Positions 36,432 to 60,672 of a stretch of 64,000 bases of DNA are shown piece by piece. A program made the translations under genes and the position numbers. The DNA is from Anaerohalosphaera lusitana. GTDB taxonomy: Bacteria; Planctomycetota; Phycisphaerae; Sedimentisphaerales; Anaerohalosphaeraceae. The notes beneath the pieces are model-generated. The model was not told the origin of the DNA, did no database searches, and saw only the letters and a program-made list of their open reading frames with translations. The DNA lies in assembly GCF_002007645.1 (NCBI RefSeq), contig NZ_CP019791.1:3402593-3466592 (forward strand), written 5' to 3'. Numbering within the stretch: the first letter of the stretch is position 1; the number at the start of each line of letters is the position of its first letter.

Positions 36432-36434
36432 AAG

Positions 36435-38444: not shown

Positions 38445-38487
38445 AAGTTCGTCGGAGACCAGGCTGTCAAATTTCTGCGACTGGCCA
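38445..38487 (+). repeat. Possible short copy (D) of the dispersed intergenic repeat
   Basis: AAGTTCGTCGGAGACC then GGCTGTCAAATTTCTGC and CTGGCC, matching the two ends of copies A and C with the middle missing. Weak; it could be chance. Confidence 0.3.
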
Positions 38488-38550
38488 ACTGGCTGATCTT
38501 GCATTATCCATGTAACAGCATAACAATCGTCCAGTCTGACTCAAACAGCC

Positions 38551-40812: not shown

Positions 40813-41005
40813 CAACCCTCTCCTTTCGCAAAAACGGCATCTATACCGCCCCCAACCACACAGCAACCCGCAAAAACTGCCCTCAACCCGGCATCGCCGC
40901 ATCGGTATTTCTCCCCATTATAGCAGACGCACACCTCCCCCACAACTAAATTTCTCAGTTACCACCTCGATTTAGCCGGCACTGCAAAAACCCGCACTGC
41001 ATCCC

Positions 41006-42457: not shown

Positions 42458-42679
42458 AACAACTCCACACAACCAAAACAAAATCAAAAATCAGAATCAA
42501 AAACACCACACCCATCAGTATACTCAACAACCCCCAATTCCACAAGCAAACATCCCCCAAACTTCGCCCCCCAATACGCACAGGCACAAAGCATTAGTTC
42601 ATTGACCACCGCCCCACCCGTCATCACCCTGCCAAAAGCAACACACCCAACAAACACACAAAAGGCAGAAAGTGTTATA

Positions 42680-43831
42680 CGCATTGTGAAATTTTTTCGC
42701 GCGCCACGGTTTTAGACTTGCGCCATCGCTAATGATGTGTCATAATTCCTAAAAAATGAAAGGAAATATGGCATGCACATCAGTGAGATCAAGTACGGTG
42801 ACCTGCAAAAGTTAAAAGAAAAAGCTCGGATTGAAACCAATGCAAAGCAGCGAGATCGATATCGGGTGGTAGCCCTGGCATTGGAGGGATGGCAAACAAA
42901 AGCGATCATGACAAAACTTGATCGCAGCAAAAACTTCGTTCAGCGATGGTGTTATTTCTACCGTGATGGCGGCATTGAGGCTATCGCACCAAAACGTCAA
43001 AGCGGCAGGCCTACAAAACTGCCACGCAAAAAAGAGCCTGAGTTGATCAAGCGAATTCAAGATGGACCAACCGATTCAGACGGTGGTGTATGTGTGCTAC
43101 GCGGCAGAGACATAAGACGGATTCTTGAAAGAGAATTTGGCGTAAAATATTCGCTCTTCGGCGTCTATGATCTAATGCATAGATTGGGGCTTTCATGTCT
43201 AAAACCAAGGCCTAAGCACCGAAAGAACGATCCGGAAAAAATGCAGCAGTGGTTGGAGCAAGCCCCCTTTTTGTCCAAAAAGTCCGAACAGAAAACCCCG
43301 AAAAGAAAATTGAGATCTGGTTCCAGGACGAAGTGCGAATAGGCCAGCAAGGAACACTGACCAATGTTTGGGCTCCAAAAGGATCCAGGCCTACAGCAGT
43401 AAAGCAGACCGAGTATGATTGGGTATATATTTTTGGAGCTGTCAATCCTGTCAATGGCAAATCGTCGGCTGTGATTACTCCGACTGTTAACACTGATTAT
43501 ATGAATCACCACCTGAGATTTATAAGCGAGGAGGCAGGCAAAGATGTACATGTGGTTCTGGTTCTTGATCAGGCTGGTTGGCATATCGCTAAACAGTTGG
43601 TTGTGCCGAAGAATATCAGCCTGCTTCACCTGCCTGCATACAGTCCGGAATTGAATCCGATAGAACGTCTTTGGGCCTATATGAAGAGTCACTACTTGAG
43701 CAACCGCATTTACAAAAATTATGAGGAAATATTCAACGCAGGAACAGTTGCATGGAACAATATAACCTCAGAAATGTTCTGCTCAATATGCAATACTGAA
43801 TGGATTAAGCATGAGAATTAATCACAATGCG
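42680..43831 (+). mobile_element. IS630-family-like element, 1152 bp
   Basis: Inverted ends CGCATTGTGA / TCACAATGCG, each bordered by TA (42678-42679 and 43832-43833), fit the TA target of IS630/Tc1-mariner elements. It carries a frameshifted transposase and ends 153 bp before the type V effector gene. Confidence 0.85.
42773..43821 (+). CDS. IS630-family transposase in two frames
   Basis: Frame 1 (42773-43342) has the N-terminal helix-turn-helix part, 'RYRVVALALEGWQTKAIMTKLDRSKNFVQRWCYFYRDGG', and the linker. Frame 2 (open 43249-43821) has the DDE part: 'EIWFQDEVRIGQQG' (D), 'VVLVLDQAGWH' (D) and 'LPAYSPELNPIERLWAYMK' (E). The second frame is at -1. The switch must fall in about 43261-43280, where CCCCCTTTTT and AAAAAG occur, both plausible slippery sites. 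Either programmed frameshifting, as in several IS630 members, or an inactivating indel; the otherwise intact motifs favour the former. Confidence 0.8.
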
Positions 43832-43910
43832 TATTAGTCCATCAACCGCATTGCATTCGCACAGCAAAACTGACACGGTCAATGAAGTGATACTTTTCGC
43901 CGTCCTGCAC

Positions 43911-43938
43911 TTGACAACCGGATACAAAATACTAAAAT
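43911..43938 (+). promoter_or_regulatory. Candidate promoter of the type V effector gene
   Basis: TTGACA (43911-43916) and TAAAAT (43933-43938) with a 16-bp spacer, 47 bp before the start codon. AGGAGG at 43971-43976 is an excellent ribosome-binding site eight bases before the ATG. Confidence 0.65.
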
Positions 43939-43984
43939 AAAACAGTTTCCACAAAATCGCAAACGTCCACAGGAGGACAAATAA

Positions 43985-46228
43985 ATGGCAACCAAATCGT
44001 ACCGTGCCCGGATCCTCACCGACTCCCGCCTCGCCGCCGCACTCGATCGCACCCACGTCGTCTTTGTAGAATCGCTCAAGCAGATGATCAATACATACCT
44101 CCGCATGCAGAACGGCAAATTCGGCCCCGACCATAAGAAGCTCGCCCAGATAATGCTCTCCCGCTCCAACACTTTTGCCCACGGCGTTATGGACCAGATA
44201 ACCCGCGACCAACCCACCTCGACACTGGACGAAGAATGGACCGACCTCGCCCGTCGCATACACAAAACCACGGGCCCTCTCTTCCTCCAGGCCGAACGCT
44301 TCGCAACCGTCAAGAACCGCGCTATACACACAAAATCTCGCGGCAAGGTCATCCCTTCTCCAGAAACACTCGCCGTACCAGCCAAATTCTGGCACCAGGT
44401 CTGCGACAGCGCCTCCGCCTACATCCGCTCAAACCGAGAACTCATGCAGCAGTGGCGGAAGGACCGCGCAGCCTGGCTCAAAGACAAAAACGAATGGCAG
44501 CAAAAGCACCCCGAATTCATGCAGTTCTATAACGGCCCATATCAAAACTTCCTCAAGCTATGCGATGACGACCGCATCACCTCCCAGCTCGCCGCCGAAC
44601 AGCAGCCTACCGCCTCCAAAAACAACCGCCCCCGTAAGACCGGCAAACGCTTCGCCCGCTGGCACCTCTGGTACAAATGGCTCAGCGAAAACCCCGAAAT
44701 AATAGAATGGCGAAACAAGGCCTCCGCCTCAGACTTCAAAACCGTCACCGACGACGTTCGCAAACAGATAATCACCAAATACCCCCAGCAGAACAAATAC
44801 ATTACCCGCCTGCTCGACTGGCTCGAAGACAACAACCCCGAACTCAAAACCCTCGAAAACCTACGCCGAACATACGTCAAAAAATTCGACTCCTTCAAAA
44901 GACCCCCGACCCTCACGCTCCCCTCGCCGTACAGACACCCCTACTGGTTCACCATGGAACTCGACCAGTTCTACAAAAAAGCAGACTTCGAAAATGGAAC
45001 CATCCAACTCCTGCTCATAGACGAGGACGACGACGGCAACTGGTTCTTCAACTGGATGCCCGCCAGCCTCAAGCCCGACCCCCGACTCGTCCCCTCATGG
45101 CGCGCCGAAACATTCGAAACCGAAGGCCGCTTTCCGCCATATCTCGGCGGAAAGATCGGCAAAAAGCTCTCACGCCCCGCACCGACCGACGCCGAACGAA
45201 AAGCAGGCATCGCCGGCGCAAAGCTCATGATCAAGAACAACCGCAGCGAACTGCTCTTCACGGTCTTCGAACAGGATTGCCCGCCGCGTGTCAAATGGGC
45301 AAAAACCAAAAACCGAAAATGCCCCGCCGACAACGCCTTCTCCTCCGACGGCAAAACACGCAAACCCCTGCGCATACTTTCAATCGACCTCGGCATCCGT
45401 CACATCGGCGCATTCGCTCTCACACAGGGCACACGAAACGACTCCGCATGGCAAACCGAATCACTCAAAAAAGGCATCATAAACAGCCCCTCAATACCCC
45501 CGCTCCGTCAGGTCCGCCGCCACGACTACGACCTCAAACGAAAACGCCGCCGCCACGGAAAACCCGTAAAGGGCCAGCGATCGAACGCAAACCTTCAGGC
45601 CCACAGAACCAACATGGCACAGGACCGCTTCAAGAAAGGCGCATCCGCCATCGTCTCACTCGCCCGCGAACACTCCGCCGACCTCATCCTGTTCGAAAAT
45701 CTCCATAGCCTCAAATTCTCCGCATTTGACGAACGCTGGATGAACCGCCAGCTCCGCGACATGAACCGACGACACATCGTCGAACTCGTCAGCGAACAGG
45801 CCCCCGAATTCGGCATCACCGTCAAGGACGACATTAATCCCTGGATGACAAGCCGCATATGCTCCAACTGCAACCTCCCCGGCTTCCGCTTCTCCATGAA
45901 AAAGAAAAACCCCTACCGCGAAAAACTCCCTCGCGAAAAATGCACCGACTTCGGCTACCCCGTCTGGGAACCCGGCGGCCACCTCTTCCGATGCCCCCAC
46001 TGCGATCATCGCGTAAACGCCGACATAAACGCAGCCGCAAATCTCGCCAACAAATTCTTCGGCCTCGGCTACTGGAACAACGGCCTCAAATACGACGCCG
46101 AAACCAAAACTTTCACCGTCCACACAGACAAAAAAACACCGCCCCTCATCTTCAAGCCTCGACCCCAATTCGACCTCTGGGCGGACTCGGTAAAAACTCG
46201 CAAACAGCTCGGCCCCGATCCATTCTGA
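43985..46228 (+). CDS. Compact type V (Cas12b/Cas12g-like) CRISPR effector nuclease
   Basis: 747 residues, directly upstream of a CRISPR array. RuvC catalytic set intact: D468 in 'LRILSIDLGIRHIGAFAL', E571 in 'LILFENLHSLKF' and D680 in 'RVNADINAAANLANKFF'. A C4 zinc ribbon (C626/C629, 'ICSNC'; C670/C673, 'CPHC') lies between RuvC-II and RuvC-III. The N-terminus 'MATKSYRARI' and the 'FTHEV'-like 'FAHGVMD' recall Cas12b, and 'PTLTLPSPYRHPYWFTMEL' followed by 'PYLGGKIGKKL' parallels the pre-RuvC part of Cas12b. The size and the zinc ribbon recall Cas12g; Cas12b is typically about 1,100-1,300 residues. A lysine/arginine-rich segment (about 516-535) lies between RuvC-I and -II. Subtype is from memory of family sequences, not a search. 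No cas1/cas2/cas4 nearby. Codon use matches the neighbours, so it is not a very recent arrival. Confidence 0.88.
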   Translation: MATKSYRARILTDSRLAAALDRTHVVFVESLKQMINTYLRMQNGKFGPDHKKLAQIMLSRSNTFAHGVMDQITRDQPTSTLDEEWTDLARRIHKTTGPLFLQAERFATVKNRAIHTKSRGKVIPSPETLAVPAKFWHQVCDSASAYIRSNRELMQQWRKDRAAWLKDKNEWQQKHPEFMQFYNGPYQNFLKLCDDDRITSQLAAEQQPTASKNNRPRKTGKRFARWHLWYKWLSENPEIIEWRNKASASDFKTVTDDVRKQIITKYPQQNKYITRLLDWLEDNNPELKTLENLRRTYVKKFDSFKRPPTLTLPSPYRHPYWFTMELDQFYKKADFENGTIQLLLIDEDDDGNWFFNWMPASLKPDPRLVPSWRAETFETEGRFPPYLGGKIGKKLSRPAPTDAERKAGIAGAKLMIKNNRSELLFTVFEQDCPPRVKWAKTKNRKCPADNAFSSDGKTRKPLRILSIDLGIRHIGAFALTQGTRNDSAWQTESLKKGIINSPSIPPLRQVRRHDYDLKRKRRRHGKPVKGQRSNANLQAHRTNMAQDRFKKGASAIVSLAREHSADLILFENLHSLKFSAFDERWMNRQLRDMNRRHIVELVSEQAPEFGITVKDDINPWMTSRICSNCNLPGFRFSMKKKNPYREKLPREKCTDFGYPVWEPGGHLFRCPHCDHRVNADINAAANLANKFFGLGYWNNGLKYDAETKTFTVHTDKKTPPLIFKPRPQFDLWADSVKTRKQLGPDPF

Positions 46229-46235
46229 TTTTCAC

Positions 46236-46263
46236 TTGCGATCGAACCCGAATTATATATAAT
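46236..46263 (+). promoter_or_regulatory. Candidate promoter for the effector-array intergenic RNA
   Basis: TTGCGA (46236-46241) and TATAAT (46258-46263) with a 16-bp spacer, beginning 8 bp after the effector stop codon. It points toward the CRISPR array. Confidence 0.6.
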
Positions 46264-46269
46264 AATATA

Positions 46270-46530
46270 CGCCTATCAGCCAACATGCTCGCTTTGCGAA
46301 GGCTGACGGCCCGCTCTCATTTGGCATTGCCGGGAGCCGGAGTTTTCGGAAGAGAGTGTCGACGACTGCTGATCTCCGCATCCGCGTCCTGTTCGCCAGG
46401 CCGGGTCGGGTGTACGGATCATGCTGGCAGCAGTCTACGCCGAGAACATTCGCTTTTTTATATGTGCATAAGTTGCCGCGAACTCCAGGCGCGCACGAAT
46501 TCCCCGGCAGGTTCGCGGAATGTGCCTAAT
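46270..46530 (+). ncRNA. Candidate tracrRNA region (structured, with short anti-repeat matches)
   Basis: Non-coding DNA between effector and array. The first part (about 46310-46370) folds into a long stem closed by CGCTCTC/GAGAGTG. CATTCGC at 46447-46453, directly before six T (46454-46459), is complementary to GCGAATG of the CRISPR repeat. A second match, TTCGCGG-AA-TGTGC at 46512-46525, can pair with GCACA...CCGCGAA of the repeat (12 pairs with a small internal loop). Cas12b and Cas12g need a tracrRNA, so one is expected here. Which match is the real anti-repeat, and the RNA ends, are undecided. Confidence 0.5.
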
Positions 46531-46666
46531 TCCGCAGCATAAAGGGACTTACAGAAATTATATCCTATGTATTCACACGCTTATTGCTTAAAAACACAAT
46601 GTCCCGCCGGGGTTCGCGATATGCGCCGCCCAAACCACTGAAAACAAACAACTTGCAAACACAGCC

Positions 46667-47550
46667 GGCGCAACCCGCACACAACCGCGAATGGACACCA
46701 GTCTCCAAATTAAGATATTAGTGTCTGTTACGGCGCAACCCGCACACAACCGCGAATGGACACACTCAATCAACTTCATAAACTTCTTCTGACTCTCAGG
46801 CGCAACCCGCACACAACCGCGAATGGACACAACTCCCGGGCATACTCGACATCCGAACCCCCAAGGCGCAACCCGCACACAACCGCGAATGGACACACAA
46901 ACTGTTTCGCTACCCTCACCGCCCCCCTCATGGCGCAACCCGCACACAACCGCGAATGGACACGGTACTTGATCCATGACAACCTCACCAAATTAGAGGC
47001 GCAACCCGCACACAACCGCGAATGGACACTATCAAAGGCGCGAATCTCTCGTTATTGTCTTCGGCGCAACCCGCACATAACCGCGAATGGACACCTATGT
47101 GATTTTTCGCGATCTCTCGCGTTATTCGGCGCAACCCGCACACAACCGCGAATGGACACAAGTTGATGTTAGCAGTACGCACACACCGAGCACGGCGCAA
47201 CCCGCACACAACCGCGAATGGACACGCCAGCTTATGACAGCGAGGCGAAAAAGTCTGAGGCGCAACCCGCACACAACCGCGAATGGACACGTTTTGTGCT
47301 CGTGCCATAAACCTAGTATACCTGGCGCAACCCGCACACAACCGCGAATGGACACCTGTTGCGCACAGTGTACTTAGAATCACGGTGAGGCGCAACCCGC
47401 ACACAACCGCGAATGGACACCTGAACAACATGGTATCTAAATGGTATCTAATAGGCGCAACCCGCACACAACCGCGAATGGACACCTGAACAACATGGTA
47501 TCTAAATGGTATCTAATAGGCGCAACCCGCACACAACCGCGAACAAACCC
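46667..47550 (+). CRISPR. CRISPR array, 14 repeats of 32 bp, 13 spacers of 33-35 bp
   Basis: The repeat starts GGCGCAACCCGCACAC and ends CGCGAATGGACAC. Repeat starts: 46667, 46732, 46799, 46865, 46932, 46998, 47063, 47128, 47194, 47259, 47324, 47389, 47454, 47519. Repeat 7 has one C-to-T change. The last repeat keeps the first 25 bases but its end is GAACAAACCC instead of GAATGGACAC, which marks the distal end and puts the leader on the effector side. The ...GGACAC 3' end resembles the ...GGCAC end of Cas12b repeats, consistent with + strand transcription. Spacers 12 and 13 are identical. All 'proteins' predicted across it, on either strand, are translations of the repeats. Confidence 0.98.
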
Positions 47551-47693
47551 ATGTGCCGCTCGAGGCCACGGAGGCCAATCTACGTACGCAACACGCCCAC
47601 ACTGACGAAACTTAACCAACTCGCCTCCCACTATACCAAAAACCCAGCAAACAAAAGACAAAGCCTATGGACCCGCAAATTGCTTAAGTGTGT

Positions 47694-47713
47694 TGATAAT
47701 GATTATCTTTATC
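47694..47713. promoter_or_regulatory. Fur-box-like palindrome 1
   Basis: TGATAATGATTATCTTTATC, 17 of 19 positions match the Fur consensus GATAATGATAATCATTATC. Confidence 0.5.
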
Positions 47714-47887
47714 TGTCAAGGCGAGGAAACCCATCACGGTTTAACAACACAAACCCCCATGGTTGAAATCCACCGACACACACCAAAATGTCAAACCGAA
47801 AATATCCCATCACAAAACCCGAAAACCGGACCAATCCTCTACTCCCACCTCCAATTCCCGAACCCACCAACCGCATAACATTTAAAT

Positions 47888-47966
47888 GAAAAGTCCGCCG
47901 AGAATGGACCTACCAAAAAGCACGCCTAATGCGCGGCTGTTATATTCTGCCCCGGCCTAACGGACG
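47888..47966 (+). repeat. Dispersed intergenic repeat, copy C
   Basis: Starts AAAAGTCCGCCGAGAATGG, contains CCAAAAAGCACG as in copy B and GCTGTTATATTCTGC as in copy A. Confidence 0.65.
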
Positions 47967-48195
47967 CACGACCAACACCACACCACCTACGAACGACCAA
48001 CCACCCGGCCAACCCACGCCGTCACCAAAAAACAAATCGTCACACTCTGCGCGCACTCCAGGCAATCGCCACAACCAACTTCCGGAATACCACCGAACAA
48101 AAGAGCCCCACCCGGTAAGCAGACCCTTCCCTGCAAAATCAGATACCCATCAGAGAGAACAAACCGCCTATAAACGTGCGAGCAAAAAAGCGTAT

Positions 48196-48215
48196 TGATA
48201 ATAGTTATCATTATC
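48196..48215. promoter_or_regulatory. Fur-box-like palindrome 2
   Basis: TGATAATAGTTATCATTATC, 16 of 19 positions match the Fur consensus. Confidence 0.45.
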
Positions 48216-48431
48216 TCCACCACAAGAAATGCCCCTCCCCCCCTTTCTCGACAAGCCATTGTTGAACTCCACCCACACAGCCAACTGCCAAAGAGCCAAA
48301 TAGCCAAAACCGCACACAGCCGCCCCCCCAAGCACCACCCAAACACCAAAACTAAAAACTAAAAAAGAAAACAATACACATCGACTCCACAACACTTCAT
48401 GCCAAAAAATCCCAAACCCCAATCCCGTGTC

Positions 48432-48451
48432 GATCATGATTATCATTATTA
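48432..48451. promoter_or_regulatory. Fur-box-like palindrome 3
   Basis: GATCATGATTATCATTATTA, 16 of 19 positions match the Fur consensus. Confidence 0.42.
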
Positions 48452-48556
48452 ACAAAACAGTCCTCCAGCCCTTTCTTCGTGCTCCTTCGTGCCCTTCGTG
48501 GTGAAAACTGTCTTCAAAGAATCTCCCACTTGACAGGTAGGAAATAGCCTGTCAGC

Positions 48557-48630
48557 TTTTACCCACTTTTACCCCATTTTCACCCCACCTATATACCACT
48601 TTTGCTCGTTTTTACCCTACTTTTGCCCCC
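48557..48630 (+). repeat. Degenerate short tandem repeats (TTTTACCCC type)
   Basis: Imperfect copies such as TTTTACCCAC, TTTTACCCCA, TTTTCACCCCA, TTTTTACCCTAC and TTTTGCCCCC follow one another at roughly 10-12 base spacing, with one longer interruption. Confidence 0.55.
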
Positions 48631-49103
48631 TCAAAAAAGCCCAAAATCAGCCCATTTCAGCCAATGTCCTATTTACCAGGTGTCCACTCTCAGCACCTTT
48701 ACCCATATCCGAAGGAAGAAAACACCCCTTCCCAAAAGCAAAATACCCACGATTTCCCAGCCGACCCCCATTTCAGCCCAACCCACTGGGCAATATCCCC
48801 CACTAGCACGTAAACTCCTCAAACACGCCACCCAACCGCTCAGATTACCCTTAAAAACATCCAAGCCGACCGCCACTGTCTACATATTTGCATCGCAAAA
48901 TCCGCTCAAAACTACCGATTTGAACGCCCCAAACAGCGAAAACACCGCTCTCAGCCGTAAAAACCACCAAACCACGACACAAAACATCCCTACCACCCAT
49001 CACTCTGATATCCACCACATACGCCCGATTACCACATCTACCAACCCCAAATAGCCTAACCCCAACCCAGTTTAAACTACATCCAACATAAAACACAAGT
49101 ACG

Positions 49104-49130
49104 TTGTGATAATGATTATCATTATCACAA
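49104..49130. promoter_or_regulatory. Fur-box-like palindrome 4 (perfect 13-bp arms)
   Basis: TTGTGATAATGAT, a single central T, then its exact reverse complement. 18 of 19 core positions match the Fur consensus. It lies just downstream of dprA, so no obvious target gene follows it. Confidence 0.6.
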
Positions 49131-49176
49131 CCAGCCTCGCCATTGCCTCAAAAACAGCTAAGATTACACGCCCACA

Positions 49177-50379
49177 TCATTTCTTCACGAAAACATTCCC
49201 CGGCAACTGTTTCACTAAACCCTTTAACCGCAAGGAGATAAGTGCACTGTTCACCTCCCCCGCACCCCGTCCGCACGCCCGTATGACCTCCTCAACATGC
49301 ACCGGCTCACCGTCAAAACTGCCCAGAACCGCCTTCTCGCCGTCGCTGAGATTCAGTCTCGCTGCATCAAAGAGCGGCGTCTCCACCTTGCCCTTAGTCT
49401 TTGTCTCACAAGCACTTACATGACCTTTCAGCCCCTCGCCCACATACCCAAGCGTCTCCATCACATCCTCCACGCTGTCCACCAGACGCGCACCTTCCTT
49501 TATCAACCCGTTTGATCCTTTACTTCTCGGTGAATCGATCCTGCCGGGCACCGCCATCACCTCCCGATTGTTCGTAAGTGCTTGTTTGGCAGTGATTAAC
49601 GCGCCGCTCCGTGCCGCCGCCTCGATCACGATCACCCCCATAACAAGCCCTGCAATTATCCGGTTTCGGGCCGGAAAATTCTGCGACAAAGGCTCAAATC
49701 CCAAAGGCAGCTCACTGATAACCGCCCCGTTTCCCCCGCCCGGACCATTAGCATCACCAACGTAAGTCTTTTTATTGCCGTCACTTGCGCGCCCGCATAT
49801 CAGCTCGAACAGCTTCCTGTTCTCCGGCGGAAATACGTTGCCCAGCCCGCAGCCCTGCACCGCGATAGTCCGTCCACCTGCCGCCAGCGCACCGCGATGC
49901 GCTGCCGTATCGATCCCGCGAGCCAGACCGCTGACGATCGTAAATCCTGATGAGGCAAGCACATGCGCAAATCTCTCCGCCTGCTCCTTTCCGTAAATAC
50001 TGCACCCTCGCGACCCTACTATCGCCACCGCCAGGCTGTCCGACCTGGCAAATTCCCCCTTCACATACAGTACCGGCGGCGGATCATAAGTCTCCTTCAG
50101 CGCCATTGGATACCGCGCATCATCTATCGTAATGACTGTCACGCCCAGCTTATCGGCAAGCTCTAACTCCTTGCCTGCATTGAAGTTATCAATACTGCCC
50201 CTGATTGCATTCGCCGTCTTGGGCCCCACTCCCTCTACCTTCGTGAGCTGATGAACCGACGCCCCGAGCACATCCTCAACCGTCCCAAAATGCTTCCTGA
50301 GCCTGATAAACGTCTTAGGCCCAACCCCGTCCGCCCTCACCAGCCGAAGCCAGTTCTCCACTCCCTCAGAATGATTCAT
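49177..50379 (-). CDS. dprA: DNA processing protein DprA/Smf
   Basis: 400 residues. N-terminal helix-hairpin-helix pair ('GVGPKTFIRLRKHFGT' and 'VEGVGPKTANAIRGS'), then the DprA Rossmann-like core 'VAIVGSRGCSIYGKEQAERFA', 'IVSGLARGIDTAAHRGAL', 'FPARNRIIAGLVMGVIVIEAAARSGALITAKQAL', and a C-terminal winged-helix-like region ending 'LKGLVKQLPGNVFVKK'. DprA loads RecA on incoming single-stranded DNA in natural transformation. Compared with the usual core there is an insertion of about 20 residues ('GRASDGNKKTYVGDANGPGGGNG'). Confidence 0.95.
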   Translation of the reverse strand: MNHSEGVENWLRLVRADGVGPKTFIRLRKHFGTVEDVLGASVHQLTKVEGVGPKTANAIRGSIDNFNAGKELELADKLGVTVITIDDARYPMALKETYDPPPVLYVKGEFARSDSLAVAIVGSRGCSIYGKEQAERFAHVLASSGFTIVSGLARGIDTAAHRGALAAGGRTIAVQGCGLGNVFPPENRKLFELICGRASDGNKKTYVGDANGPGGGNGAVISELPLGFEPLSQNFPARNRIIAGLVMGVIVIEAAARSGALITAKQALTNNREVMAVPGRIDSPRSKGSNGLIKEGARLVDSVEDVMETLGYVGEGLKGHVSACETKTKGKVETPLFDAARLNLSDGEKAVLGSFDGEPVHVEEVIRACGRGAGEVNSALISLRLKGLVKQLPGNVFVKK

Positions 50380-50473
50380 TATAAATTCCTTTTTTTAACT
50401 GAGCTAAACCACGGACTTTATAATTGCAAGTCTAAGCAATTCTATATTTCTTAAAGCATCTTCGTTTTTAATA

Positions 50474-53182
50474 TTACTGCATCAGCCAGCTCTGGGCAAA
50501 AACAGCTAAGTCCTTAAAGTTTACTTTGCAGTCACCTGTTAGATCTTCAGGCAAATACCTGCAGGTTTGCGCTCTGCCGTTGACATACAGAGAAAGTATA
50601 GCTTCGGGGGACAACTCGTCATTATAGATGCTGACACCGTCAATTAAGCCCATGAAGCTTCGATCATTCCAATGTCCTATGGTCAACTCTTTATCGGAAA
50701 CAGTATCTATCGAGCACGGAACTACGATCCGTGGTTCGTCGGGACGACCATCAACGTAGAATTTACAGTCAGTGACATTTGGGTTTTCCATCTCGGGAAG
50801 AACGACAGTAACATGGTGCCAATTACCATCGTTCAATAATGCAGAACCGATTTTCCTGCCTCCCTTAACAGATAGCCTCAGTGCACCGTCCTCATGGACG
50901 CTGATTAGCCATGTTCCTCCCTCTTGAAGCGAACCGCCCCAGCCCAGAATTGCTTTCCAAGTAGTTTCAGTTTTGATCCAGGCTGTTACGGTTCTGGCCT
51001 GAGTACCAGTAATTCCGTAGTAACCCGGAACTGTTACAACTTGTTCATTGTGATCAAACTGCAGGGCGTATCCGTCTCTGGATGGAGTCCAGGAGTTTTC
51101 AAGGTTCGCCAGATGAGCATCTAGACCACCTGCCGAACCCACATCCTCAGCAACAGATCCACTACCTGTATTAAAATGCCACTCATGTAACGGTTGCCAT
51201 AAAGATCTACCATCAGCCATCCACCTACCTGAGAAATCGGTCAAATCGCTGAAGTCTGTTTTCTCGTCATCATTAAAGTCGCCGGGGATGGCTCCTACGG
51301 CTTCATAAGCCCCCATGTCTACAATGGCACCCGAGCCCTGGCCACTATCAGGAGCTGACGAAAGGTATGAAAGTCTCGGCTTTCCGTTAAGGTCAATGGA
51401 TATTTTTTCAGTGACATTGCCATCGCCATCAACGTCAAACTGGTCAGCAGGTACTTTTAAATTTGAAGCCGCATCTATACAGGGACTCGTCAAAGTCAAC
51501 TTCAATTCATCGTCAGGCATTGGATGAGTGAGACGAAAATCATAGTCCTGCAACTCGCCATCCTCATAATAACCGGTATCAACAAAAAGAGGATCAGCGA
51601 GAATATTATTGTCGCGCCAATCGATTAGTTTATCTACAACATCTATGCCATCCTTACCATTTTGGATGTCAGAGAAAGCAATCAGCAGGTAAACAGGATA
51701 GTAATCATCTGCCGCCGAAATTTGGCTGCCCAGTGTGCCATCCGATAAATTTCGATTTCCCCAAAAAATTGAATTGAGGACCTTCACATCAGCCCAGTAT
51801 TCAAGGTGCAAACCACCAGCAGATTGCATGGCTCTATTATAAGCGAAAGTGCAATTTACAATCTTAAACTTCTTTTCATGGGTGAAGTATGCACCTCCCC
51901 CCTTTGGTGCATAATTATCCGCAATAAGACAATTGAAAAGTGAGGCGCTGCCGTTATTGTACACTGATATCCCACCACCAGGTTTGGATGAGGAGTTGCT
52001 GACTATCGCGGTATTTTGCACAAAAATTACAGGCCTGATGGAAGTTCCTGACGTACTGATTCCGCCGGCATTGCCTTTTACCAGGGAATTTAGTATTACA
52101 ACCTCATTGGTGCTACTAATACGAATGCCAGTAAAAGAGTTATTTATAAATTGACAGTTATCGAATCTTAAGGGCTCCGTATACCCGCCGTCGGAATAGA
52201 CTCCATCCTGTGAATTAAGTGTAAATTTACATCTTGCAGCTTCCAGAGAACAGGTGTCTATAAACATACCCCATTGATTGTTGTCTTTGAGCAAACAATC
52301 TGTCATCTTTAATTTTGCCTTGTAAGCCCGGATTCCAGAAGTCCCGTTACCTGCGATAGTGCAATTTTCAATAATAGTTTGCGGTTCAAAAATAGTATCG
52401 TTATTGATGGCAATGGTTCCTATAGTATTTGGAAAATCAGCATTAGAAGTCAGAATGCAGTTTTTAATGACAGGGGCAGCGTTCTCAATATATATGGCGG
52501 AACCAGGGTAGCCGCCTTTTCTACCAACACTGCCAGCCGGTGCTTTGCCGTTGATTATTTTAAGGCCATAAATTTCCTGCTTTATAAATTTGTACCCTTT
52601 GAAAGTAAAGCCTCGGTGGGGATACTGCCCGGTGCCTTGGCAGTCTATTATTGTTTGTTCGGGGCCGTGGGAGGATTTTACGGTTATGGGTTTTCCTTTG
52701 AAGTCTATGTCTCGGTTGCCTGTGCCGGTGTATGTGCCGGGGGCGATCAGGACGGTGTCGTTTGGGTTGGCGGCGTCTATTGCGGCCTGGATGGTCGGGT
52801 AGTCGGCTGGGACGCGGAGGGGGATCGTTACGGTAAGGGTGAGGTCGATGTTCTGCTGGTCGGAGGCGGTGGTTATGGCTGCTGTGGTGGTGTATGCGTC
52901 TGCGGGGAGGCCGGTGTGGGCGATCCGGAGGGTTATGTCTGAGGATGAGTCGGCGGGTGTTGTGCCGGTCGCGGGTTCGATGCGGAGCCAGGGGCAGTCG
53001 TATTCGATCTGCCAGTCGAGGGGTGTGTCGGCGGGGTTTGTGAGGGTTATTGTGTGCGTCTGGATGTCCGAGTCGCCGGCGGCTGCGCGGATCTGGAGGT
53101 CGGTTTTCGAGAGGTCGAATGCAGATGCGGTTGCAGTGAATACGGCGGTCAGCAGAAGTGTGGATGCGATGAGATATTTCAT
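50474..53182 (-). CDS. Large secreted beta-helix / LamG protein with dockerin-like tail
   Basis: 902 residues from the ATG at 53182 (GGAAGGG upstream). Signal peptide 'MKYLIASTLLLTAVFTATASA'. An immunoglobulin-like BACON-type module ('DWQIEYDCPWLRIEPATGTTP') precedes a right-handed parallel beta-helix starting at 'VPADYPTIQAAIDAANPNDTVLIAPGTY', with repeated 'C.I..N...(G)' coils. An internal 'PGDFNDDEKTDFSDLTDFSGRW' segment, a LamG/concanavalin-like domain and a final dockerin-like 'LTGDCKVNFKDLAVFAQSWLMQ' follow. Probably polysaccharide-binding or -degrading at the surface. Codon use changes within the gene near 52.57 kb. Confidence 0.85.
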   Translation of the reverse strand: MKYLIASTLLLTAVFTATASAFDLSKTDLQIRAAAGDSDIQTHTITLTNPADTPLDWQIEYDCPWLRIEPATGTTPADSSSDITLRIAHTGLPADAYTTTAAITTASDQQNIDLTLTVTIPLRVPADYPTIQAAIDAANPNDTVLIAPGTYTGTGNRDIDFKGKPITVKSSHGPEQTIIDCQGTGQYPHRGFTFKGYKFIKQEIYGLKIINGKAPAGSVGRKGGYPGSAIYIENAAPVIKNCILTSNADFPNTIGTIAINNDTIFEPQTIIENCTIAGNGTSGIRAYKAKLKMTDCLLKDNNQWGMFIDTCSLEAARCKFTLNSQDGVYSDGGYTEPLRFDNCQFINNSFTGIRISSTNEVVILNSLVKGNAGGISTSGTSIRPVIFVQNTAIVSNSSSKPGGGISVYNNGSASLFNCLIADNYAPKGGGAYFTHEKKFKIVNCTFAYNRAMQSAGGLHLEYWADVKVLNSIFWGNRNLSDGTLGSQISAADDYYPVYLLIAFSDIQNGKDGIDVVDKLIDWRDNNILADPLFVDTGYYEDGELQDYDFRLTHPMPDDELKLTLTSPCIDAASNLKVPADQFDVDGDGNVTEKISIDLNGKPRLSYLSSAPDSGQGSGAIVDMGAYEAVGAIPGDFNDDEKTDFSDLTDFSGRWMADGRSLWQPLHEWHFNTGSGSVAEDVGSAGGLDAHLANLENSWTPSRDGYALQFDHNEQVVTVPGYYGITGTQARTVTAWIKTETTWKAILGWGGSLQEGGTWLISVHEDGALRLSVKGGRKIGSALLNDGNWHHVTVVLPEMENPNVTDCKFYVDGRPDEPRIVVPCSIDTVSDKELTIGHWNDRSFMGLIDGVSIYNDELSPEAILSLYVNGRAQTCRYLPEDLTGDCKVNFKDLAVFAQSWLMQ

Positions 53183-53579
53183 TTTACCCTTCCTCGTGAA
53201 TAGGCGGTTTCGGTTCAACTGGCCGTAATGATACCTATGACGACAGTTTGAGTCAAGATAAATTGTGGACAAAGTGCTGTGGAATCGGCAAATACTTTGC
53301 GGCAGGTGAGTTTTGCGGGATATCTTTTTATTTTTTCATGTTTTTGCGCAAAAGAGCGGCAGTGGTTGCGCGTAAGAATGTGCACAGGCAGTTCGAAACG
53401 GCAAGTCACATTTTTGTAACTGGTCCGTGGAAATTACGGAATGGAGAAGGAACCCGTTTGCCGAGTGATGAGTCGGCGGCAGTAGCGGAAGAGTGTGAAA
53501 AACAATGGAACAGACGTCGGGTGTCCGGCGGAACAGTGATAGAGTAAGTTGTTTTTCAGTTAAGGCAAGGAGAGTAGCG
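53183..53579. other. Divergent intergenic region between two secreted-protein genes
   Basis: 397 bp, no gene. It contains TTGTGGACAA (around 53263-53272), one mismatch from a DnaA box on one strand, but no cluster of such boxes. Confidence 0.35.
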
Positions 53580-55733
53580 ATGAAGAAATCTTTTGTGATC
53601 CTGATGTTGTTTTGCGCGGTGAGTTTTTCTGCGCATGCGGGCGTGGTCGCGTATGATTCGTTCGACGGCGCTGACGGAACGGACGTAGACGGCAGTACGG
53701 GCGGCGTCGGCTGGTCGGCCGGCTGGACGGATGAGGCTGGGAACGCAACGCAGTTCGTGTTCAGCAGCCCGGGCAATACGTTCGGCGCGCTGGAAGTAGG
53801 CGGGCTGAAGGCGCTGTACCTTGGTAACGGAACAGGCGGTATTACAAGGTATACACGTCCCTTGACCAGTGCTGTGACGATCGACGGTACAAATCCGGAG
53901 ATTTGGTTTTCTGCGCTCGTGGAGATCGGGCCGGATGATGGTCAGCTCGGTAGAGGTATTGGTGTTGAATTGAGGAATGCAGGAAGCCAGGTTCTATTTT
54001 TAGGCAAATGGCTCAACAAGCAGCTTGGGATATGTTCGAGCTCGAACGATGATTACATCAATGTATTGAGTCGTTCAACGGATGTATGGTTCATGGTTGC
54101 ACAGTTGGCGTATGACGGCACTGATACTGTGGCGACTCTATATGTAGCGAACGGTGACGAAGAAGGTTTCGCGATCGATGATCTGAGCACGTATGCGGCT
54201 TCAGGGTCGATCACGATCAGCGGTCCGATAACGATAGATGGCGCAGCACTGCACGGTTATCACGGGGGCACGACTACGAACAGCGTGGATGAGCTCAAGA
54301 TCGCGGATTCTTTCGGCGATATTATTTCCAGTGCGACCGCGGGTTCGCCGAGTCCGTCGGCTGGTGAGACACTGGTTGCGACTGATGTGATTCTTAGCTG
54401 GAGCGGTCCATCGAAATATGCCGCGAGCAGTTATGATGTTTACTTCGGTACGGACCCGAATACGCAGAGTGCGACTTATGACATGACGCTGATCGGGGAC
54501 GGTATTACGAACACGAGTATCGATCCTACGCCTACGGGTGAGCTTGCCAACGAGACGACGTATTACTGGCAGGTTGATGCTTATGACGGCACGACGCTTT
54601 ATGAGGGCAGCTTGTGGTCGTTTACGACGGTTCCGCCTACGGTATTGATCACGGACCAGCCTGAAGGTACGACGGTTGCGGCAGGGGAGAGTGTTACGCT
54701 AAGTGTTGTCGCAGAGAATGCAGAGAGCTATGCCTGGTACGTGACGGACGCGGCAGGTAACGAGACGTTGGTGACGGACGCTGCGGGGCAGGTTAGCGGC
54801 GCTACTACGGCGAGTTTGACTTTGACGGATGTTCAGCAGTCGGACGAGGGTCTGTACAAGTGCGTTGCGTCGAATACTGTGCCGAGCAGTGAGGCGTCCG
54901 CCGAGGCGCTGGTCATGACTGCACGTCTGGTCAGTGAATGGTCGTTCGAGAGCAGTCTTGCTGATTCGGTAGGCGGCTGGGACGGTGTTGTAGTCGATCC
55001 TAACACGGCGAATTCCGACGTTGCTGACGTAGCTTACGGCAGTGGTCTCGGCGGCGGTCAGGGTCTGGTGCTGAACGCTAATTCGGGCACGGCAGGTTAT
55101 GATGACGCTTTCGTTGAGATCGCAGGGTCGGAGAAGTGGTTCAATTTCTATCCGAACGGCATAACGGTTTCCGCATGGGTCAAGGCAGCGGCAGACGGCA
55201 ATTACCAGAATATCATGTCGAAGTACGATTCGCCCGCATATCGCGGCTGGGTCATGAACATGTCAGGCGGCGGTGCGAGCATCTTTGCGGCTCGCTCGAT
55301 AGGTCCTGCTTTTGGTCCTTCCGTCGGTGATGATACATGGCATCTTGTGGTTGGTCAGTATGATCCTGTTGCCGGTGAGCAGAGAATCTACGTTGACGGT
55401 GTGCTGGAAGGATCGAGCAGCGGTACGCCGCAGCCTGAGCTTCCGCTGGTACCGGTTCATATAGGCGCTGAAGCTTTTGATGCGGCTACCGGAGAGGTTA
55501 ACATACCTTTCAAGGGTACGATCGACGAAGTGAAGATATTCAGCTCCGTTGTCGATCCGGTCACAGTTGCGTATATGTATACGGACGTTACCGGCGAGAC
55601 GATCTGCTATGACGGTCAGGGTCTGGAGTATGACTTTAATGGTGACTGCGTTGTGGATCTGGCGGACTTTGCGGAGTTTGCGGGTACGTGGCTGAACTGC
55701 AGGCAGATACCAGAGTGCATTGACAGGCCATAG
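53580..55733 (+). CDS. Secreted Ig-like / LamG protein with dockerin-like tail
   Basis: 717 residues from the ATG at 53580, which has AAGGAGAG upstream; the frame opens 25 codons earlier. Signal peptide 'MKKSFVILMLFCAVSFSAHAG'. Regions in order: an N-terminal concanavalin-like beta domain ('YDSFDGADGTDVDGSTGGVGWSAGW'); a fibronectin-like part ending 'TYYWQVDAYDG'; an Ig-like part ('YAWYVTDAAGNETLVTDA..SLTLTDVQQSDEGLYKCVASN'); a LamG domain ('KWFNFYPNGITVSAWVKA', 'WHLVVGQYD', 'IYVDGVLEGSS'); and a tail 'YDFNGDCVVDLADFAEFAGTWLNC'. Likely a surface carbohydrate-binding protein. Confidence 0.85.
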   Translation: MKKSFVILMLFCAVSFSAHAGVVAYDSFDGADGTDVDGSTGGVGWSAGWTDEAGNATQFVFSSPGNTFGALEVGGLKALYLGNGTGGITRYTRPLTSAVTIDGTNPEIWFSALVEIGPDDGQLGRGIGVELRNAGSQVLFLGKWLNKQLGICSSSNDDYINVLSRSTDVWFMVAQLAYDGTDTVATLYVANGDEEGFAIDDLSTYAASGSITISGPITIDGAALHGYHGGTTTNSVDELKIADSFGDIISSATAGSPSPSAGETLVATDVILSWSGPSKYAASSYDVYFGTDPNTQSATYDMTLIGDGITNTSIDPTPTGELANETTYYWQVDAYDGTTLYEGSLWSFTTVPPTVLITDQPEGTTVAAGESVTLSVVAENAESYAWYVTDAAGNETLVTDAAGQVSGATTASLTLTDVQQSDEGLYKCVASNTVPSSEASAEALVMTARLVSEWSFESSLADSVGGWDGVVVDPNTANSDVADVAYGSGLGGGQGLVLNANSGTAGYDDAFVEIAGSEKWFNFYPNGITVSAWVKAAADGNYQNIMSKYDSPAYRGWVMNMSGGGASIFAARSIGPAFGPSVGDDTWHLVVGQYDPVAGEQRIYVDGVLEGSSSGTPQPELPLVPVHIGAEAFDAATGEVNIPFKGTIDEVKIFSSVVDPVTVAYMYTDVTGETICYDGQGLEYDFNGDCVVDLADFAEFAGTWLNCRQIPECIDRP

Positions 55734-55772
55734 TGCAGGAAGCATTGAAATAGCATAAGGTGGATGATTTGC

Positions 55773-55806
55773 GGCCCCGGTCGGTATATACTGGCTGGGG
55801 CCTTTT
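55773..55806 (+). terminator. Terminator after the LamG protein gene
   Basis: GGCCCC/GGGGCC stem with an 18-base internal part that can extend it, followed by TTTTG, 40 bp past the stop. Confidence 0.75.
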
Positions 55807-55858
55807 GTTTGCGCGGTTCTTTTGGGGGCGATATGAAGACATGGACATAATTATTTAA

Positions 55859-56608
55859 GGTTCAAGGGAAGATAACTTGGATTAAATTGGGTTCTTTCTG
55901 AGTATTTTTAACAGTAACTTGTACAGGTCATCGTGTCGATGGTTAAATCTAAATTCACATTCTTTCAGGTGCAGAGCAAAGGTACCTTTGCTGATTCCTC
56001 GAAACTTGTTGAGCCGACCTTTGGCAATCGCCCAGAAGTTCTCAATTCCGTTAATGTGATTGTGACCTTCAGCAAATTCGTTCTCTCCATGTTTGACGCG
56101 ATAGTGCTTCTTGTAGCCAAAGTCAACCAGGCCGTCATAGGTTTTGAAACCATCGGTGTACACGATCGAATCCTTATCAACCTTTTGCTTTATAATGGGC
56201 ATCAGCGTGCTTTTAGAGCAGTTTCTGACCACCTGCGTGTAGACCTTACCGCCGCGTTTTATCAGGCCGAAGACAATGTGCTTGCCCTTAGCACCACGGC
56301 CTCGAACGCCACGCACCCTTCGGGCTCCGAAATAGCTTTCGTCGATCTCAATCTCGCCGACGTCAAACGGACTTTGCTGCTGACAGTATTCGGCGATCCG
56401 TATTCGAATTTTGTAAAGAATCGTGTTGATGGTCTTTCTCGAAAGACCAGTCAGCTCAGCAATTTTGGTGGCCTCGATATCCAGGGCGAACAGCTTTACG
56501 ATCTGCCGGAATTTGGCCTCCGAAATTTTTGAACGCTTTTTGTACTTGTTAATCATTGTGGGATAATAACTTAACGCCATCTATAGTCAAGTTATCTTCC
56601 CTTGAACC
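55859..56608 (-). mobile_element. IS1595-family element, 750 bp
   Basis: Perfect 21-bp inverted ends starting GGTTCAAGGGAAGATAAC, with an 8-bp target duplication TTATTTAA at 55851-55858 and 56609-56616. Contains one transposase gene. Confidence 0.93.
55882..56580 (-). CDS. IS1595-family transposase
   Basis: 232 residues. 'AELTGLSRKTINTILYKIRIRIAEYC' is the helix-turn-helix. The ISXO2-like DDE core is seen as 'EIEIDESYFGARRVRGVRGRGAKGKHIVFGLIKRGGKVY', 'SIVYTDGFKTYDGL', 'HYRVKHGENEFAEGHNHINGIENFWAIAKGRLNKFRGI' (with the H-N-I-E segment) and the C-terminal 'HLKECEFRFNHR'. Intact, so the element may be active. No zinc-binding N-terminus, so it belongs to a short subgroup. Confidence 0.93.
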   Translation of the reverse strand: MALSYYPTMINKYKKRSKISEAKFRQIVKLFALDIEATKIAELTGLSRKTINTILYKIRIRIAEYCQQQSPFDVGEIEIDESYFGARRVRGVRGRGAKGKHIVFGLIKRGGKVYTQVVRNCSKSTLMPIIKQKVDKDSIVYTDGFKTYDGLVDFGYKKHYRVKHGENEFAEGHNHINGIENFWAIAKGRLNKFRGISKGTFALHLKECEFRFNHRHDDLYKLLLKILRKNPI

Positions 56609-56814
56609 TTATTTAAAAACAATCCGGAAATCATTTTACATCAGGTTTATTGCGGGTAAACTTGGTTGCTTATAATGCCTGGAAGTCGGCTATTCGGAGT
56701 TTTTTAGATTTTTTCAGTTACGCGGGGGGATTTGGGCCGTCCATAGAGGTGAAGGCCGGGGTTCTGGAGTGGGGCCCGGTTATTTTTTGGACGGATATTG
56801 AGAGGGCTGAACAG

Positions 56815-57813
56815 ATGCTTATACCGCTAGAGGTTGATGTGCCTGAAGAAAGATGGCCGGTGGTTAACTGGTTCATTATCGGGGCGTGCGTTGTCATATT
56901 CGGTTTTGAGATGCTGTGTTTTGCCGCGGATGATTTTTCGCTGTTTGAGCCGTTCGTGCTGGATGGATTCGGGCTGACAGGAATGTTCGGGCACATGTGG
57001 CTGCACGGGGGGATCATGCATCTGATCGGAAACATGGTCTTTCTTTGGATATTCGGGAACGCGGTATGCGCGAAGCTGGGGAACATCCGGTTTCTGCTGT
57101 TTTATCTGGCTGTTGGGCTCATATCGGGTTCTGCTCATGTGATCTTCGGCGGGGAGAGGGCGATCGGTGCGAGCGGCGCGATAAACGGGGTTGTGGGAAT
57201 ATTTCTGGTGTTTTTCCCTGCGAATGCGATCACGTGCGGTTTTATCTGGTGGCTTATCCCGCCGATCTATACGACTTTCACTCTGAGCAGCTACTGGATG
57301 ATACTTTTCTGGCTGACGTTCGATATATGGGGAGCGTTTTCTGGGATCGAGTCGGGGACCGCGTATTGGGCGCACGTGGGCGGTTTTGCGGGCGGATTTG
57401 GACTGGGCGTTCTGATGCTGAAGATGGGGTGGGTGGAGATGGAGCGGTATGAGGAGTCGCTGCTGAGCATGCTGGGGATGGACCGGAAGATGGTGGCGGT
57501 GAAGGCGAAGGATGCTGGGCTGGAGGCGAAAAAGGTTGAGGACAAGAACTCAGCGTATCAGGAGGCGCGGGAGGCCAGACTCAAACGTGAGAGGGAGCGG
57601 TGGAAGAGGGAGGCCGCGGAGGCTGCGCGGGCAAAGGCTGAACGAGCGGCAGAGCAGGTGCAGAGAGCCAAGGCGGGAGGAGGCGTGATCAAATTCGCTT
57701 GTAAGTGCGGCAGGGTTATACGGGTGAAAGGTGAGCTTGCGGGAAGGAAGGGAAGGTGCCCTGAATGCGGAGGGACGGTGATTGTGCCGGGCGGTCGGCA
57801 GGCTGCGAGGTGA
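56815..57813 (+). CDS. Rhomboid intramembrane serine protease with C-terminal zinc ribbon
   Basis: 333 residues from the ATG at 56815 (GAGAGG upstream); the frame is open from 56650. Rhomboid features: 'PVVNWFIIGACVVIFGFEM', 'HMWLHGGIMHLIGNMVFLWIFGNAV' (H-x3-HxxxN), the catalytic serine in 'GASGAINGVVGIFLVFFP' and the catalytic His in 'YWAHVGGFAGGFGLG'. After the membrane part come a charged coiled coil (about 225-290) and a C4 ribbon 'FACKCGRVIRVKGELAGRKGRCPECGG', very similar to that of the protein at 22522-23019. The IS1595 element ends about 200 bp upstream and may have displaced its promoter. Confidence 0.9.
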   Translation: MLIPLEVDVPEERWPVVNWFIIGACVVIFGFEMLCFAADDFSLFEPFVLDGFGLTGMFGHMWLHGGIMHLIGNMVFLWIFGNAVCAKLGNIRFLLFYLAVGLISGSAHVIFGGERAIGASGAINGVVGIFLVFFPANAITCGFIWWLIPPIYTTFTLSSYWMILFWLTFDIWGAFSGIESGTAYWAHVGGFAGGFGLGVLMLKMGWVEMERYEESLLSMLGMDRKMVAVKAKDAGLEAKKVEDKNSAYQEAREARLKRERERWKREAAEAARAKAERAAEQVQRAKAGGGVIKFACKCGRVIRVKGELAGRKGRCPECGGTVIVPGGRQAAR

Positions 57814-57933
57814 GACCAATTTGAAAAGAAGATTAATTTTACCGGCATGGCGTAATTAATTCTTGACCGTGAAATGGCATGGGGTAAAATACCCAGAAGC
57901 GATTCATGTTAATCAGGTCCAAGGTGAATGATC

Positions 57934-58146
57934 ATGTTAAAGAATTGTGTTTTGGCGGTGTTGGTGCTTGTTGCGGTTTTTATGTCGGGGTGCTGTCCGA
58001 TGTGTGTCGAGAGGGAAGACGGAGATGCGGGCAGTTGTGAGATACGCGGCGAAAGCACAAGCGAGAAGCTCGATAACAGTGGGATACAAATAGATATGAG
58101 TTTCGAGGGATCCAGATCGGAGCTTTCATACTTCCGGGATAAGTAG
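57934..58146 (+). CDS. Small lipoprotein of unknown function
   Basis: 70 residues from the ATG at 57934 (AAGGTG seven bases upstream; the ATG at 57928 is too close to it). Signal peptide with lipobox VFMSGC followed by CPMC. The mature part is acidic with no family seen. A strong terminator follows, so it is transcribed alone. Confidence 0.65.
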   Translation: MLKNCVLAVLVLVAVFMSGCCPMCVEREDGDAGSCEIRGESTSEKLDNSGIQIDMSFEGSRSELSYFRDK

Positions 58147-58153
58147 AAATAGA

Positions 58154-58183
58154 GGAACAGTCGCGGGCTGTTCCTTTTTTTTT
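58154..58183 (+). terminator. Terminator after the small lipoprotein gene
   Basis: GGAACAG/CTGTTCC stem with a short GC loop and nine T, 8 bp past the stop. Confidence 0.9.
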
Positions 58184-58296
58184 GTGCCTTGCGGGGGTTA
58201 TTTTCGGAGGCAGTAAGAAGTTCGTTGCCGGATTTCAATAGGCGAATATAATCAGAGTAAGCGATCGCAGGATTCGGGGCTTTTAATGGAGATGCA

Positions 58297-60537: not shown

Positions 60538-60672
60538 TGAGTAATGATGGCTGAACCTGGATTTTCGAGTATAGCCTCATCTGTTTTGCAATTTTATCAA
60601 ATGCGATGATTGCGAAAACCCTGAACCATGATATGCTGACTAGAAGCTTAACATACGGTAAATGATCAGCAT

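What the first reader, a model, noticed from the sequence alone, without database searches (positions are those of the whole stretch)
47551..53580. GC-skew and gene-orientation switch: possible replication origin or inversion edge
Spot counts: 48301-48360 has C 27, G 5; 51301-51360 has C 22, G 13; 52381-52440 has G 14, C 7; 52801-52860 has G 28, C 9; 55081-55140 has G 23, C 10. Left of the switch most of the + strand is C-rich (not all: the DUF368 gene is an exception) and many genes run leftward; right of it nearly all chromosomal genes run rightward. Negative-to-positive skew on the + strand is the usual sign of an origin. The interval includes a gene-free, repeat-bearing stretch. dnaA and a DnaA-box cluster are not seen.
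Basis: partly seen in the sequence, partly recalled or inferred. Interest (0 to 1): 0.65.

Follow-up and report, generated by a model that had tools for sequence, protein, structure and literature searches.

The report
One of many likely replication origins
The abrupt strand-composition switch is real and is one of at least 18 directly seen (about 27 or more in all) on this planctomycete chromosome; each is followed by a gradual decline, and most lie about 2 kb from copies of one oriented repeat, which suggests that this bacterium copies its chromosome from many origins instead of one.

Summary
In detail: all five spot counts are exact, and skew flips abruptly within the interval. The skew is regional, not gene-linked: genes on both strands share it. 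Genome-wide the picture is not one origin with inversions. In 2.39 of 4.25 Mb, fourfold-site skew forms a sawtooth: sharp minus-to-plus jumps (about -0.7 to +0.7) followed by gradual declines over 60-120 kb, like the N-domains of the human genome. I saw 18 up-jumps; nine sampling gaps hide a further net rise. Sharp downward steps are rare. Some jumps sit in conserved gene pairs or intact genes, where inversion edges cannot lie. The gene-free strip in the window (47.5-49.2 kb) holds a noncoding repeat, a 27-bp hairpin plus CTTTTACCC-type iterons. All eleven clear copies in the DNA read lie 1.3-3.2 kb from an up-jump and face it. The hairpin was not found in 197 related genomes. The DnaA-box cluster near dnaA does not sit at a jump. 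Best explanation: many efficient bidirectional origins, window ~50.4-52.4 kb being one, with the repeat as part of the origin apparatus. This is inference from sequence; there are no replication data. Nearest precedent: multi-origin cyanobacteria.

The parts
1..50411 (.). Left arm: C-rich + strand, the end of a domain whose skew grows steadily more negative toward the jump
   Evidence: fourfold-site skew goes from about 0 at 3,320 kb to about -0.78 at 3,440 kb; + and - genes alike
50412..50609 (.). Skew up-jump, best estimate from fourfold and intergenic sites; candidate initiation site, AT-rich 94-bp gap between dprA and the beta-helix gene
   Evidence: change point 3,453,056; interval 3,453,004-3,453,201; 73% A+T
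51909..52429 (.). Skew up-jump as estimated from all bases; with the previous item it marks a transition zone of about 2 kb
50610..64000 (.). Right arm: G-rich + strand, the start of a 122-kb domain that declines to about -0.9 before the next up-jump at 3,577 kb
48517..48736 (+). Noncoding 'A core' repeat; all eleven clear copies in the DNA read lie 1.3-3.2 kb from a skew up-jump and face it
48528..48554 (+). 27-bp hairpin ACTTGACAGGTAGGAAATAGCCTGTCA inside the A core; 11 genomic copies, none in 197 relatives
48555..48650 (+). Iteron-like run of CTTTTACCC-type units spaced about 10-11 bp (G-rich on the other strand)
47755..47961 (+). Noncoding 'B' repeat upstream of A; many full or partial copies, oriented with local skew
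47695..49126 (.). Four Fur-box-like palindromes (47,695; 48,197; 48,432; 49,108)
49177..50379 (-). dprA, next to the jump
   Evidence: PF02481, 6.7e-70
50474..53182 (-). Secreted beta-helix / laminin-G-like gene spanning the transition zone
   Evidence: fourfold skew positive throughout

Best explanation
The switch is the border of a replication domain: a site from which forks leave in both directions in most rounds of replication. The chromosome has many such sites (18 seen, about 27 or more inferred), roughly 60-150 kb apart, with termination spread between neighbours. That would give sharp upward skew jumps at origins and gradual declines between them. Near-complete sign reversal at a jump (about -0.7 to +0.7 at fourfold sites) means that the flanking 10-20 kb is nearly always copied outward from that jump. 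This argues against one origin that wanders over time and against origins that fire rarely. A lineage-specific noncoding element (A core: hairpin plus iterons; often with B and a Fur-type palindrome) lies about 2 kb to one side, always facing the jump, and probably helps specify the origin, for example as initiator-binding iterons or as a transcript that primes replication. Shown: sawtooth, independence of gene strand, element-jump association and orientation. Inferred: that skew reports fork direction here, that the sites are active today, and that the element takes part in initiation.
For: (1) Skew is DNA-level: GC3 skew correlates r=0.75 with opposite-strand neighbours and the gene-strand coefficient is about 0; fourfold skew of + and - genes in the same 10 kb correlates 0.89; genes pointing toward and away from jumps have equal skew at 5-10 kb (0.45 vs 0.44). 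(2) Sawtooth: 12 up vs 3 down events at >=0.35 and 6 vs 0 at >=0.40; asymmetry P about 0.0008; 10-kb bins spread evenly from -0.8 to +0.8 instead of two peaks. (3) Three fully read domains fit a linear decline better than a step on all bases (delta BIC -18, -23, -36). (4) TA skew tracks GC skew, r=0.85. (5) All 11 clear A-core copies in the DNA read lie 1.3-3.2 kb from an up-jump and face it. Copies at 426.7, 714.9, 1090.1, 1346.9, 3790.4 kb and a weak one at 4069.0 kb pointed to jumps not known beforehand; the local skew found afterwards agrees for each. (6) No jump at the DnaA-box cluster beside dnaA. (7) The same pipeline on 200 kb of E. coli around oriC gives weak skew (mostly within +-0.25) and no sawtooth.
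Against: No replication data. Only 56% of the chromosome was read, part of it chosen near suspected jumps. tRNA genes are not co-oriented with the inferred forks (6 of 14), and gene co-orientation is seen only within 10 kb of jumps. Some jumps (570, 1114, 4217 kb) have no detectable A core. For the window's own right-hand domain, linear and step fit about equally on fourfold sites. The element is absent from relatives, and the jump at the conserved prenyl-synthase/miaA pair is not conserved, so comparative support for origin function is missing. No DnaA-box clusters or known initiator sites were found at jumps.
Confidence: 0.68

Rival explanations
1. Single-origin chromosome scrambled by inversions; the window switch is an inversion edge and skew has not yet re-equilibrated.
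For: Local blocks of opposite sign exist, and a global trend (minimum near 0.87-0.90 Mb, maximum near 3.1 Mb) survives. The junction lies by a multi-domain gene and 3 kb from an IS1595-type transposase.
Against: Inversions predict as many sharp down as up edges and flat blocks; observed 12 vs 3 events at >=0.35 and 6 vs 0 at >=0.40, with gradual declines. Bin values are evenly spread, not two-peaked. The 155-kb jump lies at the prenyl-synthase/miaA pair, an adjacency kept in most of the relatives tested, and the 2,148-kb and 891-kb change-point intervals lie largely in intact aspartokinase and FtsW genes. A repeat facing one edge of every inversion is unexplained.
Confidence: 0.1
2. Multiple origins existed or moved in the past (origin hopping) and today only one is active; the skew is a fossil.
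For: The element is repeated and lineage-specific; relatives show other skew polarities at miaA.
Against: If only one of about 30 sites fires per round, a jump should be a small fraction of full amplitude; jumps here are near-complete reversals. Strong skew close to many jumps needs frequent use of each site.
Confidence: 0.1
3. Strand asymmetry comes from transcription: very strong divergent promoters at each jump.
For: 72% of genes within 5 kb of jumps point away; several jumps lie in divergent intergenic gaps.
Against: Skew is equal in genes pointing toward and away, extends 50-60 kb through genes of both orientations, and orientation bias vanishes beyond 10 kb.
Confidence: 0.05
4. Many origins are real, but the A/B element is only a passenger: a Fur-regulated small-RNA family or a single-strand mobile repeat that inserts with fork polarity. 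(This can be true together with the multi-origin reading; it contests only the role of the element.)
For: A Fur-box-like palindrome accompanies several copies, and similar boxes surround an ORF that reads as a Fur-family regulator near 593 kb. B copies far from jumps also follow skew orientation.
Against: A-core copies are tightly confined to about 2 kb from jumps and always face them; fork-directed insertion alone would spread them along the arms.
Confidence: 0.35

Closest known systems
Skew N-domains of the human genome (PMC4729899)
   Same: Sharp upward skew jumps separated by linear-type declines, read there as origins with dispersed termination and verified by Okazaki-fragment sequencing
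   Different: Human domains are 0.5-3 Mb; here about 60-150 kb, on a bacterial chromosome, with an oriented sequence element near the borders
Multi-origin, DnaA-independent replication in cyanobacteria (Synechocystis 6803, Nostoc 7120, dnaA-less species; PMC7198777)
   Same: Bacterial chromosome without a regular one-origin skew
   Different: There the skew is irregular, marker frequency is flat and sites are undefined; here skew is very strong with discrete, repeatable jump sites. Marker frequency is unknown here, and two dnaA genes are present
Archaeal multi-origin chromosomes (Sulfolobus, Haloferax; background in PMC4403523, PMC4595724)
   Same: Several discrete origins per chromosome
   Different: Those have about three origins with Orc1/Cdc6-type initiators (own knowledge for the initiator); here about 27 or more sites with a hairpin/iteron repeat in a bacterium, initiator unknown
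Canonical bacterial oriC
   Same: Minus-to-plus skew switch, AT-rich gap
   Different: No DnaA-box cluster, no dnaA/dnaN/gyrB, and one of many

Membership tests
Canonical oriC | Unique genome-wide minimum of cumulative GC skew | tested here: not met
   Minimum near 0.87-0.90 Mb and many jumps
Canonical oriC | Cluster of DnaA boxes, dnaA or dnaN adjacent | tested here: not met
   No cluster near the window jump; clusters at 4,250.16-4,250.76 kb beside dnaA
Skew N-domain border | Sharp upward jump independent of gene strand | tested here: met
Skew N-domain border | Gradual (linear) decline to the next upward jump | tested here: met
   on all bases; weaker on fourfold sites for the window's own domain
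Skew N-domain border | Fork polarity reversal measured experimentally | not testable with these tools
   needs Okazaki-fragment or marker-frequency sequencing
Inversion edge | Broken gene adjacency at the edge | tested here: inconclusive
   Not testable at this junction (dprA neighbourhood not syntenic); contradicted at the 155-kb jump
Inversion edge | Equal numbers of sharp up and down switches, flat blocks | tested here: not met
Multi-origin DnaA-independent replication (cyanobacteria) | Several initiation sites per chromosome | tested here: inconclusive
   Suggested by skew only
Multi-origin DnaA-independent replication (cyanobacteria) | DnaA absent or dispensable | not testable with these tools
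   Two dnaA genes present; dispensability unknown

The most novel reading that the evidence does not exclude
A free-living bacterium that routinely copies one circular chromosome from about 27 or more discrete, efficient bidirectional origins, each specified by a dedicated, oriented hairpin-iteron element, in a manner otherwise known from eukaryotes and some archaea, while its DnaA-box oriC is not dominant.
Probability: 0.5. Interest if true: 0.96.

Novelty: new variant of a known kind. Interest (0 to 1): 0.87.

Why it matters
One origin per bacterial chromosome is close to a textbook rule; PMC4403523 states that there was no evidence for two functional origins ever being used on one bacterial chromosome, and the cyanobacterial exceptions have no defined sites. 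If these jumps are origins, this planctomycete offers discrete, mapped, sequence-marked origins in a bacterium with N-domain skew. That makes questions about initiator choice, origin spacing, termination and co-ordination directly testable by ordinary sequencing of a culture.

Tried and rejected
Gene-orientation or transcription cause: rejected by strand-independent GC3 and fourfold skew. First idea that the Fur-type palindrome itself marks jumps: two of the four predictions made before fetching failed (593 and 1,857 kb); the noncoding A core turned out to be the better marker. DnaA boxes at jumps: only weak excess of TTWTNCACA (7 vs 3.2 expected) and no perfect boxes. Conserved dprA-jump linkage in relatives: three MAG fragments show a local minus-to-plus change upstream of dprA, but GC3 sign around dprA varies across other relatives (once corrected for strand), so not claimed. 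Conserved jump at prenyl-synthase/miaA: the gene pair is conserved, the jump is not. A polar octamer in a complete relative (G021) gave no clear blocks. Rfam, plasmid and viral searches for the element: nothing.

Full report
WHERE IT IS. The window is bases 3,402,593-3,466,592 of a single 4,250,973-base contig.

OBSERVATION. All five spot counts are exact. Skew is negative to about 51 kb and positive from 52 kb. The gene-strand switch is weak: left of the jump 16 + and 24 - genes, right of it 4 + and 1 -. Left of the jump + genes have GC3 skew -0.52 and - genes -0.44, so the composition belongs to the DNA region, not to gene direction. Over 1,091 sampled genes, GC3 skew correlates 0.75 with neighbours on the opposite strand and the strand coefficient is near zero.

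GENOME-WIDE PATTERN. I read 2.39 Mb of the chromosome in 10-20-kb stretches, first on a regular 50-kb grid and then with added stretches around interesting places. The cumulative minimum lies near 0.87-0.90 Mb, which refutes the window as the single origin. Contiguous stretches show a sawtooth: abrupt rises from strongly negative to strongly positive, then slow decline through zero to strongly negative, then another abrupt rise. Sharp events number 12 up and 3 down at >=0.35, and 6 up and 0 down at >=0.40. The skewness of adjacent-bin differences is positive (P about 0.0008 against sign-flipped blocks). At fourfold-degenerate sites the jumps run from about -0.7 to +0.7, and 10-kb bin values are spread evenly from -0.8 to +0.8 instead of forming two peaks. 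TA skew follows GC skew, r=0.85. Three domains were read from jump to jump (155-225, 829-892 and 3,453-3,577 kb); on all bases each fits a straight decline better than a step (delta BIC -18, -23, -36). On fourfold sites the preference is -14, -8 and only -3 for the window's own domain. Eighteen up-jumps lie in the DNA read and nine unread gaps have a net rise above 0.5, so about 27 or more in all. The same scripts on 200 kb of E. coli around oriC give weak skew, mostly within +-0.25, without a sawtooth.

WHY NOT INVERSIONS. A block flipped by inversion has two sharp edges of opposite sign and a flat interior, so up and down edges must balance; they do not. In addition, the jump near 155 kb lies at the divergent pair prenyl synthase/miaA, an adjacency kept in most of the 29 relatives tested, while the skew jump is not kept. 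Change-point intervals of the jumps at 2,148 and 891 kb lie largely within intact aspartokinase and FtsW genes, where breakpoints are not expected. At the window junction itself synteny is too poor to test.

WHY NOT TRANSCRIPTION. Within 5-10 kb of jumps, genes pointing toward and away from the jump have the same skew (0.45 and 0.44). Orientation bias exists only near jumps (72% away within 5 kb, 63% at 5-10 kb, about half beyond), whereas skew persists for tens of kb.

THE REPEAT. The gene-free strip in the window turned out to be homologous to the intergenic strip beside the strong 892-kb jump. A genome search found a family. The 'A core' (window 48,517-48,736) starts with the hairpin ACTTGACAGGTAGGAAAYAGCCTGTCA, goes on with CTTTTACCC-type units spaced about 10-11 bp, and ends in TATTTACCAGGTGTCCA. 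A second repeat 'B' (window 47,755-47,961) usually lies upstream of A. All eleven A-core copies with E<1e-5 in the contiguous DNA read lie 1.3-3.2 kb from an up-jump and face it: + copies to the left, - copies to the right. About 5% of the DNA read lies that close to a jump; the nominal P of 5e-15 is approximate, since the 717-kb jump was placed after the repeat was seen there. Copies at 426.7, 714.9, 1,090.1, 1,346.9, 3,790.4 kb and a weak one at 4,069.0 kb pointed to jumps not known before; local skew agrees for each, though four of these rest on short loci that do not span the whole jump. Iteron-like units are 4.4 times denser near jumps than elsewhere on the C-rich strand (A copies included). 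The hairpin occurs 11 times in this genome and in none of 197 relatives at up to 3 mismatches; only a common CTTCGTG-repeat portion of the query is shared. No match in plasmids, viral contigs or Rfam.

THE CLASSICAL ORIGIN. Two dnaA genes are present (at 0 and 470 kb). DnaA-box clusters lie at 4,250.16-4,250.76 kb, just upstream of the first. Skew there is positive on both sides and turns negative 5 kb later: no upward jump.

MECHANISM. I infer that forks leave each jump in both directions in most rounds and meet at variable points in between. Jump amplitude matters: if one origin among about thirty fired per round, each jump would be a small step; near-complete reversals need most jumps to be used most of the time. 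The A core is inferred to help initiation, as an iteron array for an unknown initiator or a transcript-primed start; its side, distance and direction are shown, its role is not. The passenger alternative (Fur-regulated RNA or fork-oriented mobile repeat) is kept as a rival, since Fur-type palindromes accompany several copies and B copies follow fork polarity far from jumps.

COMPARISON. The human genome has N-domains explained in the same way and confirmed by Okazaki sequencing (PMC4729899). Some cyanobacteria replicate from multiple undefined origins with irregular skew (PMC7198777). PMC4403523 states that multiple functional origins on one bacterial chromosome had not been shown. Searches of the held papers for a sawtooth skew on a bacterial chromosome, or for planctomycetes with multiple origins of replication, found none; that is absence in one library only.

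LIMITS. 56% of the chromosome was read, sampling was partly targeted, gene calls come from a simple script, relatives could not be profiled, tRNA genes are not co-oriented (6 of 14), and there are no replication data.

Noticed in passing
window 43985-47543: A 747-aa protein with Cas12f1-like/C2c1 RuvC domains beside a CRISPR-type array (12 exact repeats from 46,667, about 65-bp spacing): a compact type V-like locus.
   Followed up: no
L143:16395-19535 (genome 886,395-889,535): A 1,046-aa Cas9-like gene lies directly beside the A-core copy and the 892-kb jump, so two of the jumps neighbour CRISPR effectors.
   Followed up: no
genome 592,715-595,443 (L169): A cluster of Fur-box-like palindromes surrounds an ORF (592,881-593,330) that reads as a Fur-family regulator; the same palindrome recurs singly or in fours beside several skew jumps.
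   Followed up: partly
window 47755-47961 and about 35 other places: Repeat B and 65-100-bp partial copies are spread along the chromosome in one orientation relative to local skew, as expected for fork-oriented insertion or selection.
   Followed up: partly
L001:1195-2514 and L007:1-1407: Two divergent dnaA genes; the one at 470 kb has the canonical GGRDHTTV motif, the one at the contig start has GGKNHATV.
   Followed up: no
window 55882-56556: IS1595-family transposase gene about 3 kb right of the transition zone.
   Followed up: no
window 48472-48507 and 49 of 118 related genomes: A CTTCGTG-repeat sequence (TTCTTCGTGCTCCTTCGTGCCCTTCGTGGTGA) is dispersed throughout the order.
   Followed up: no
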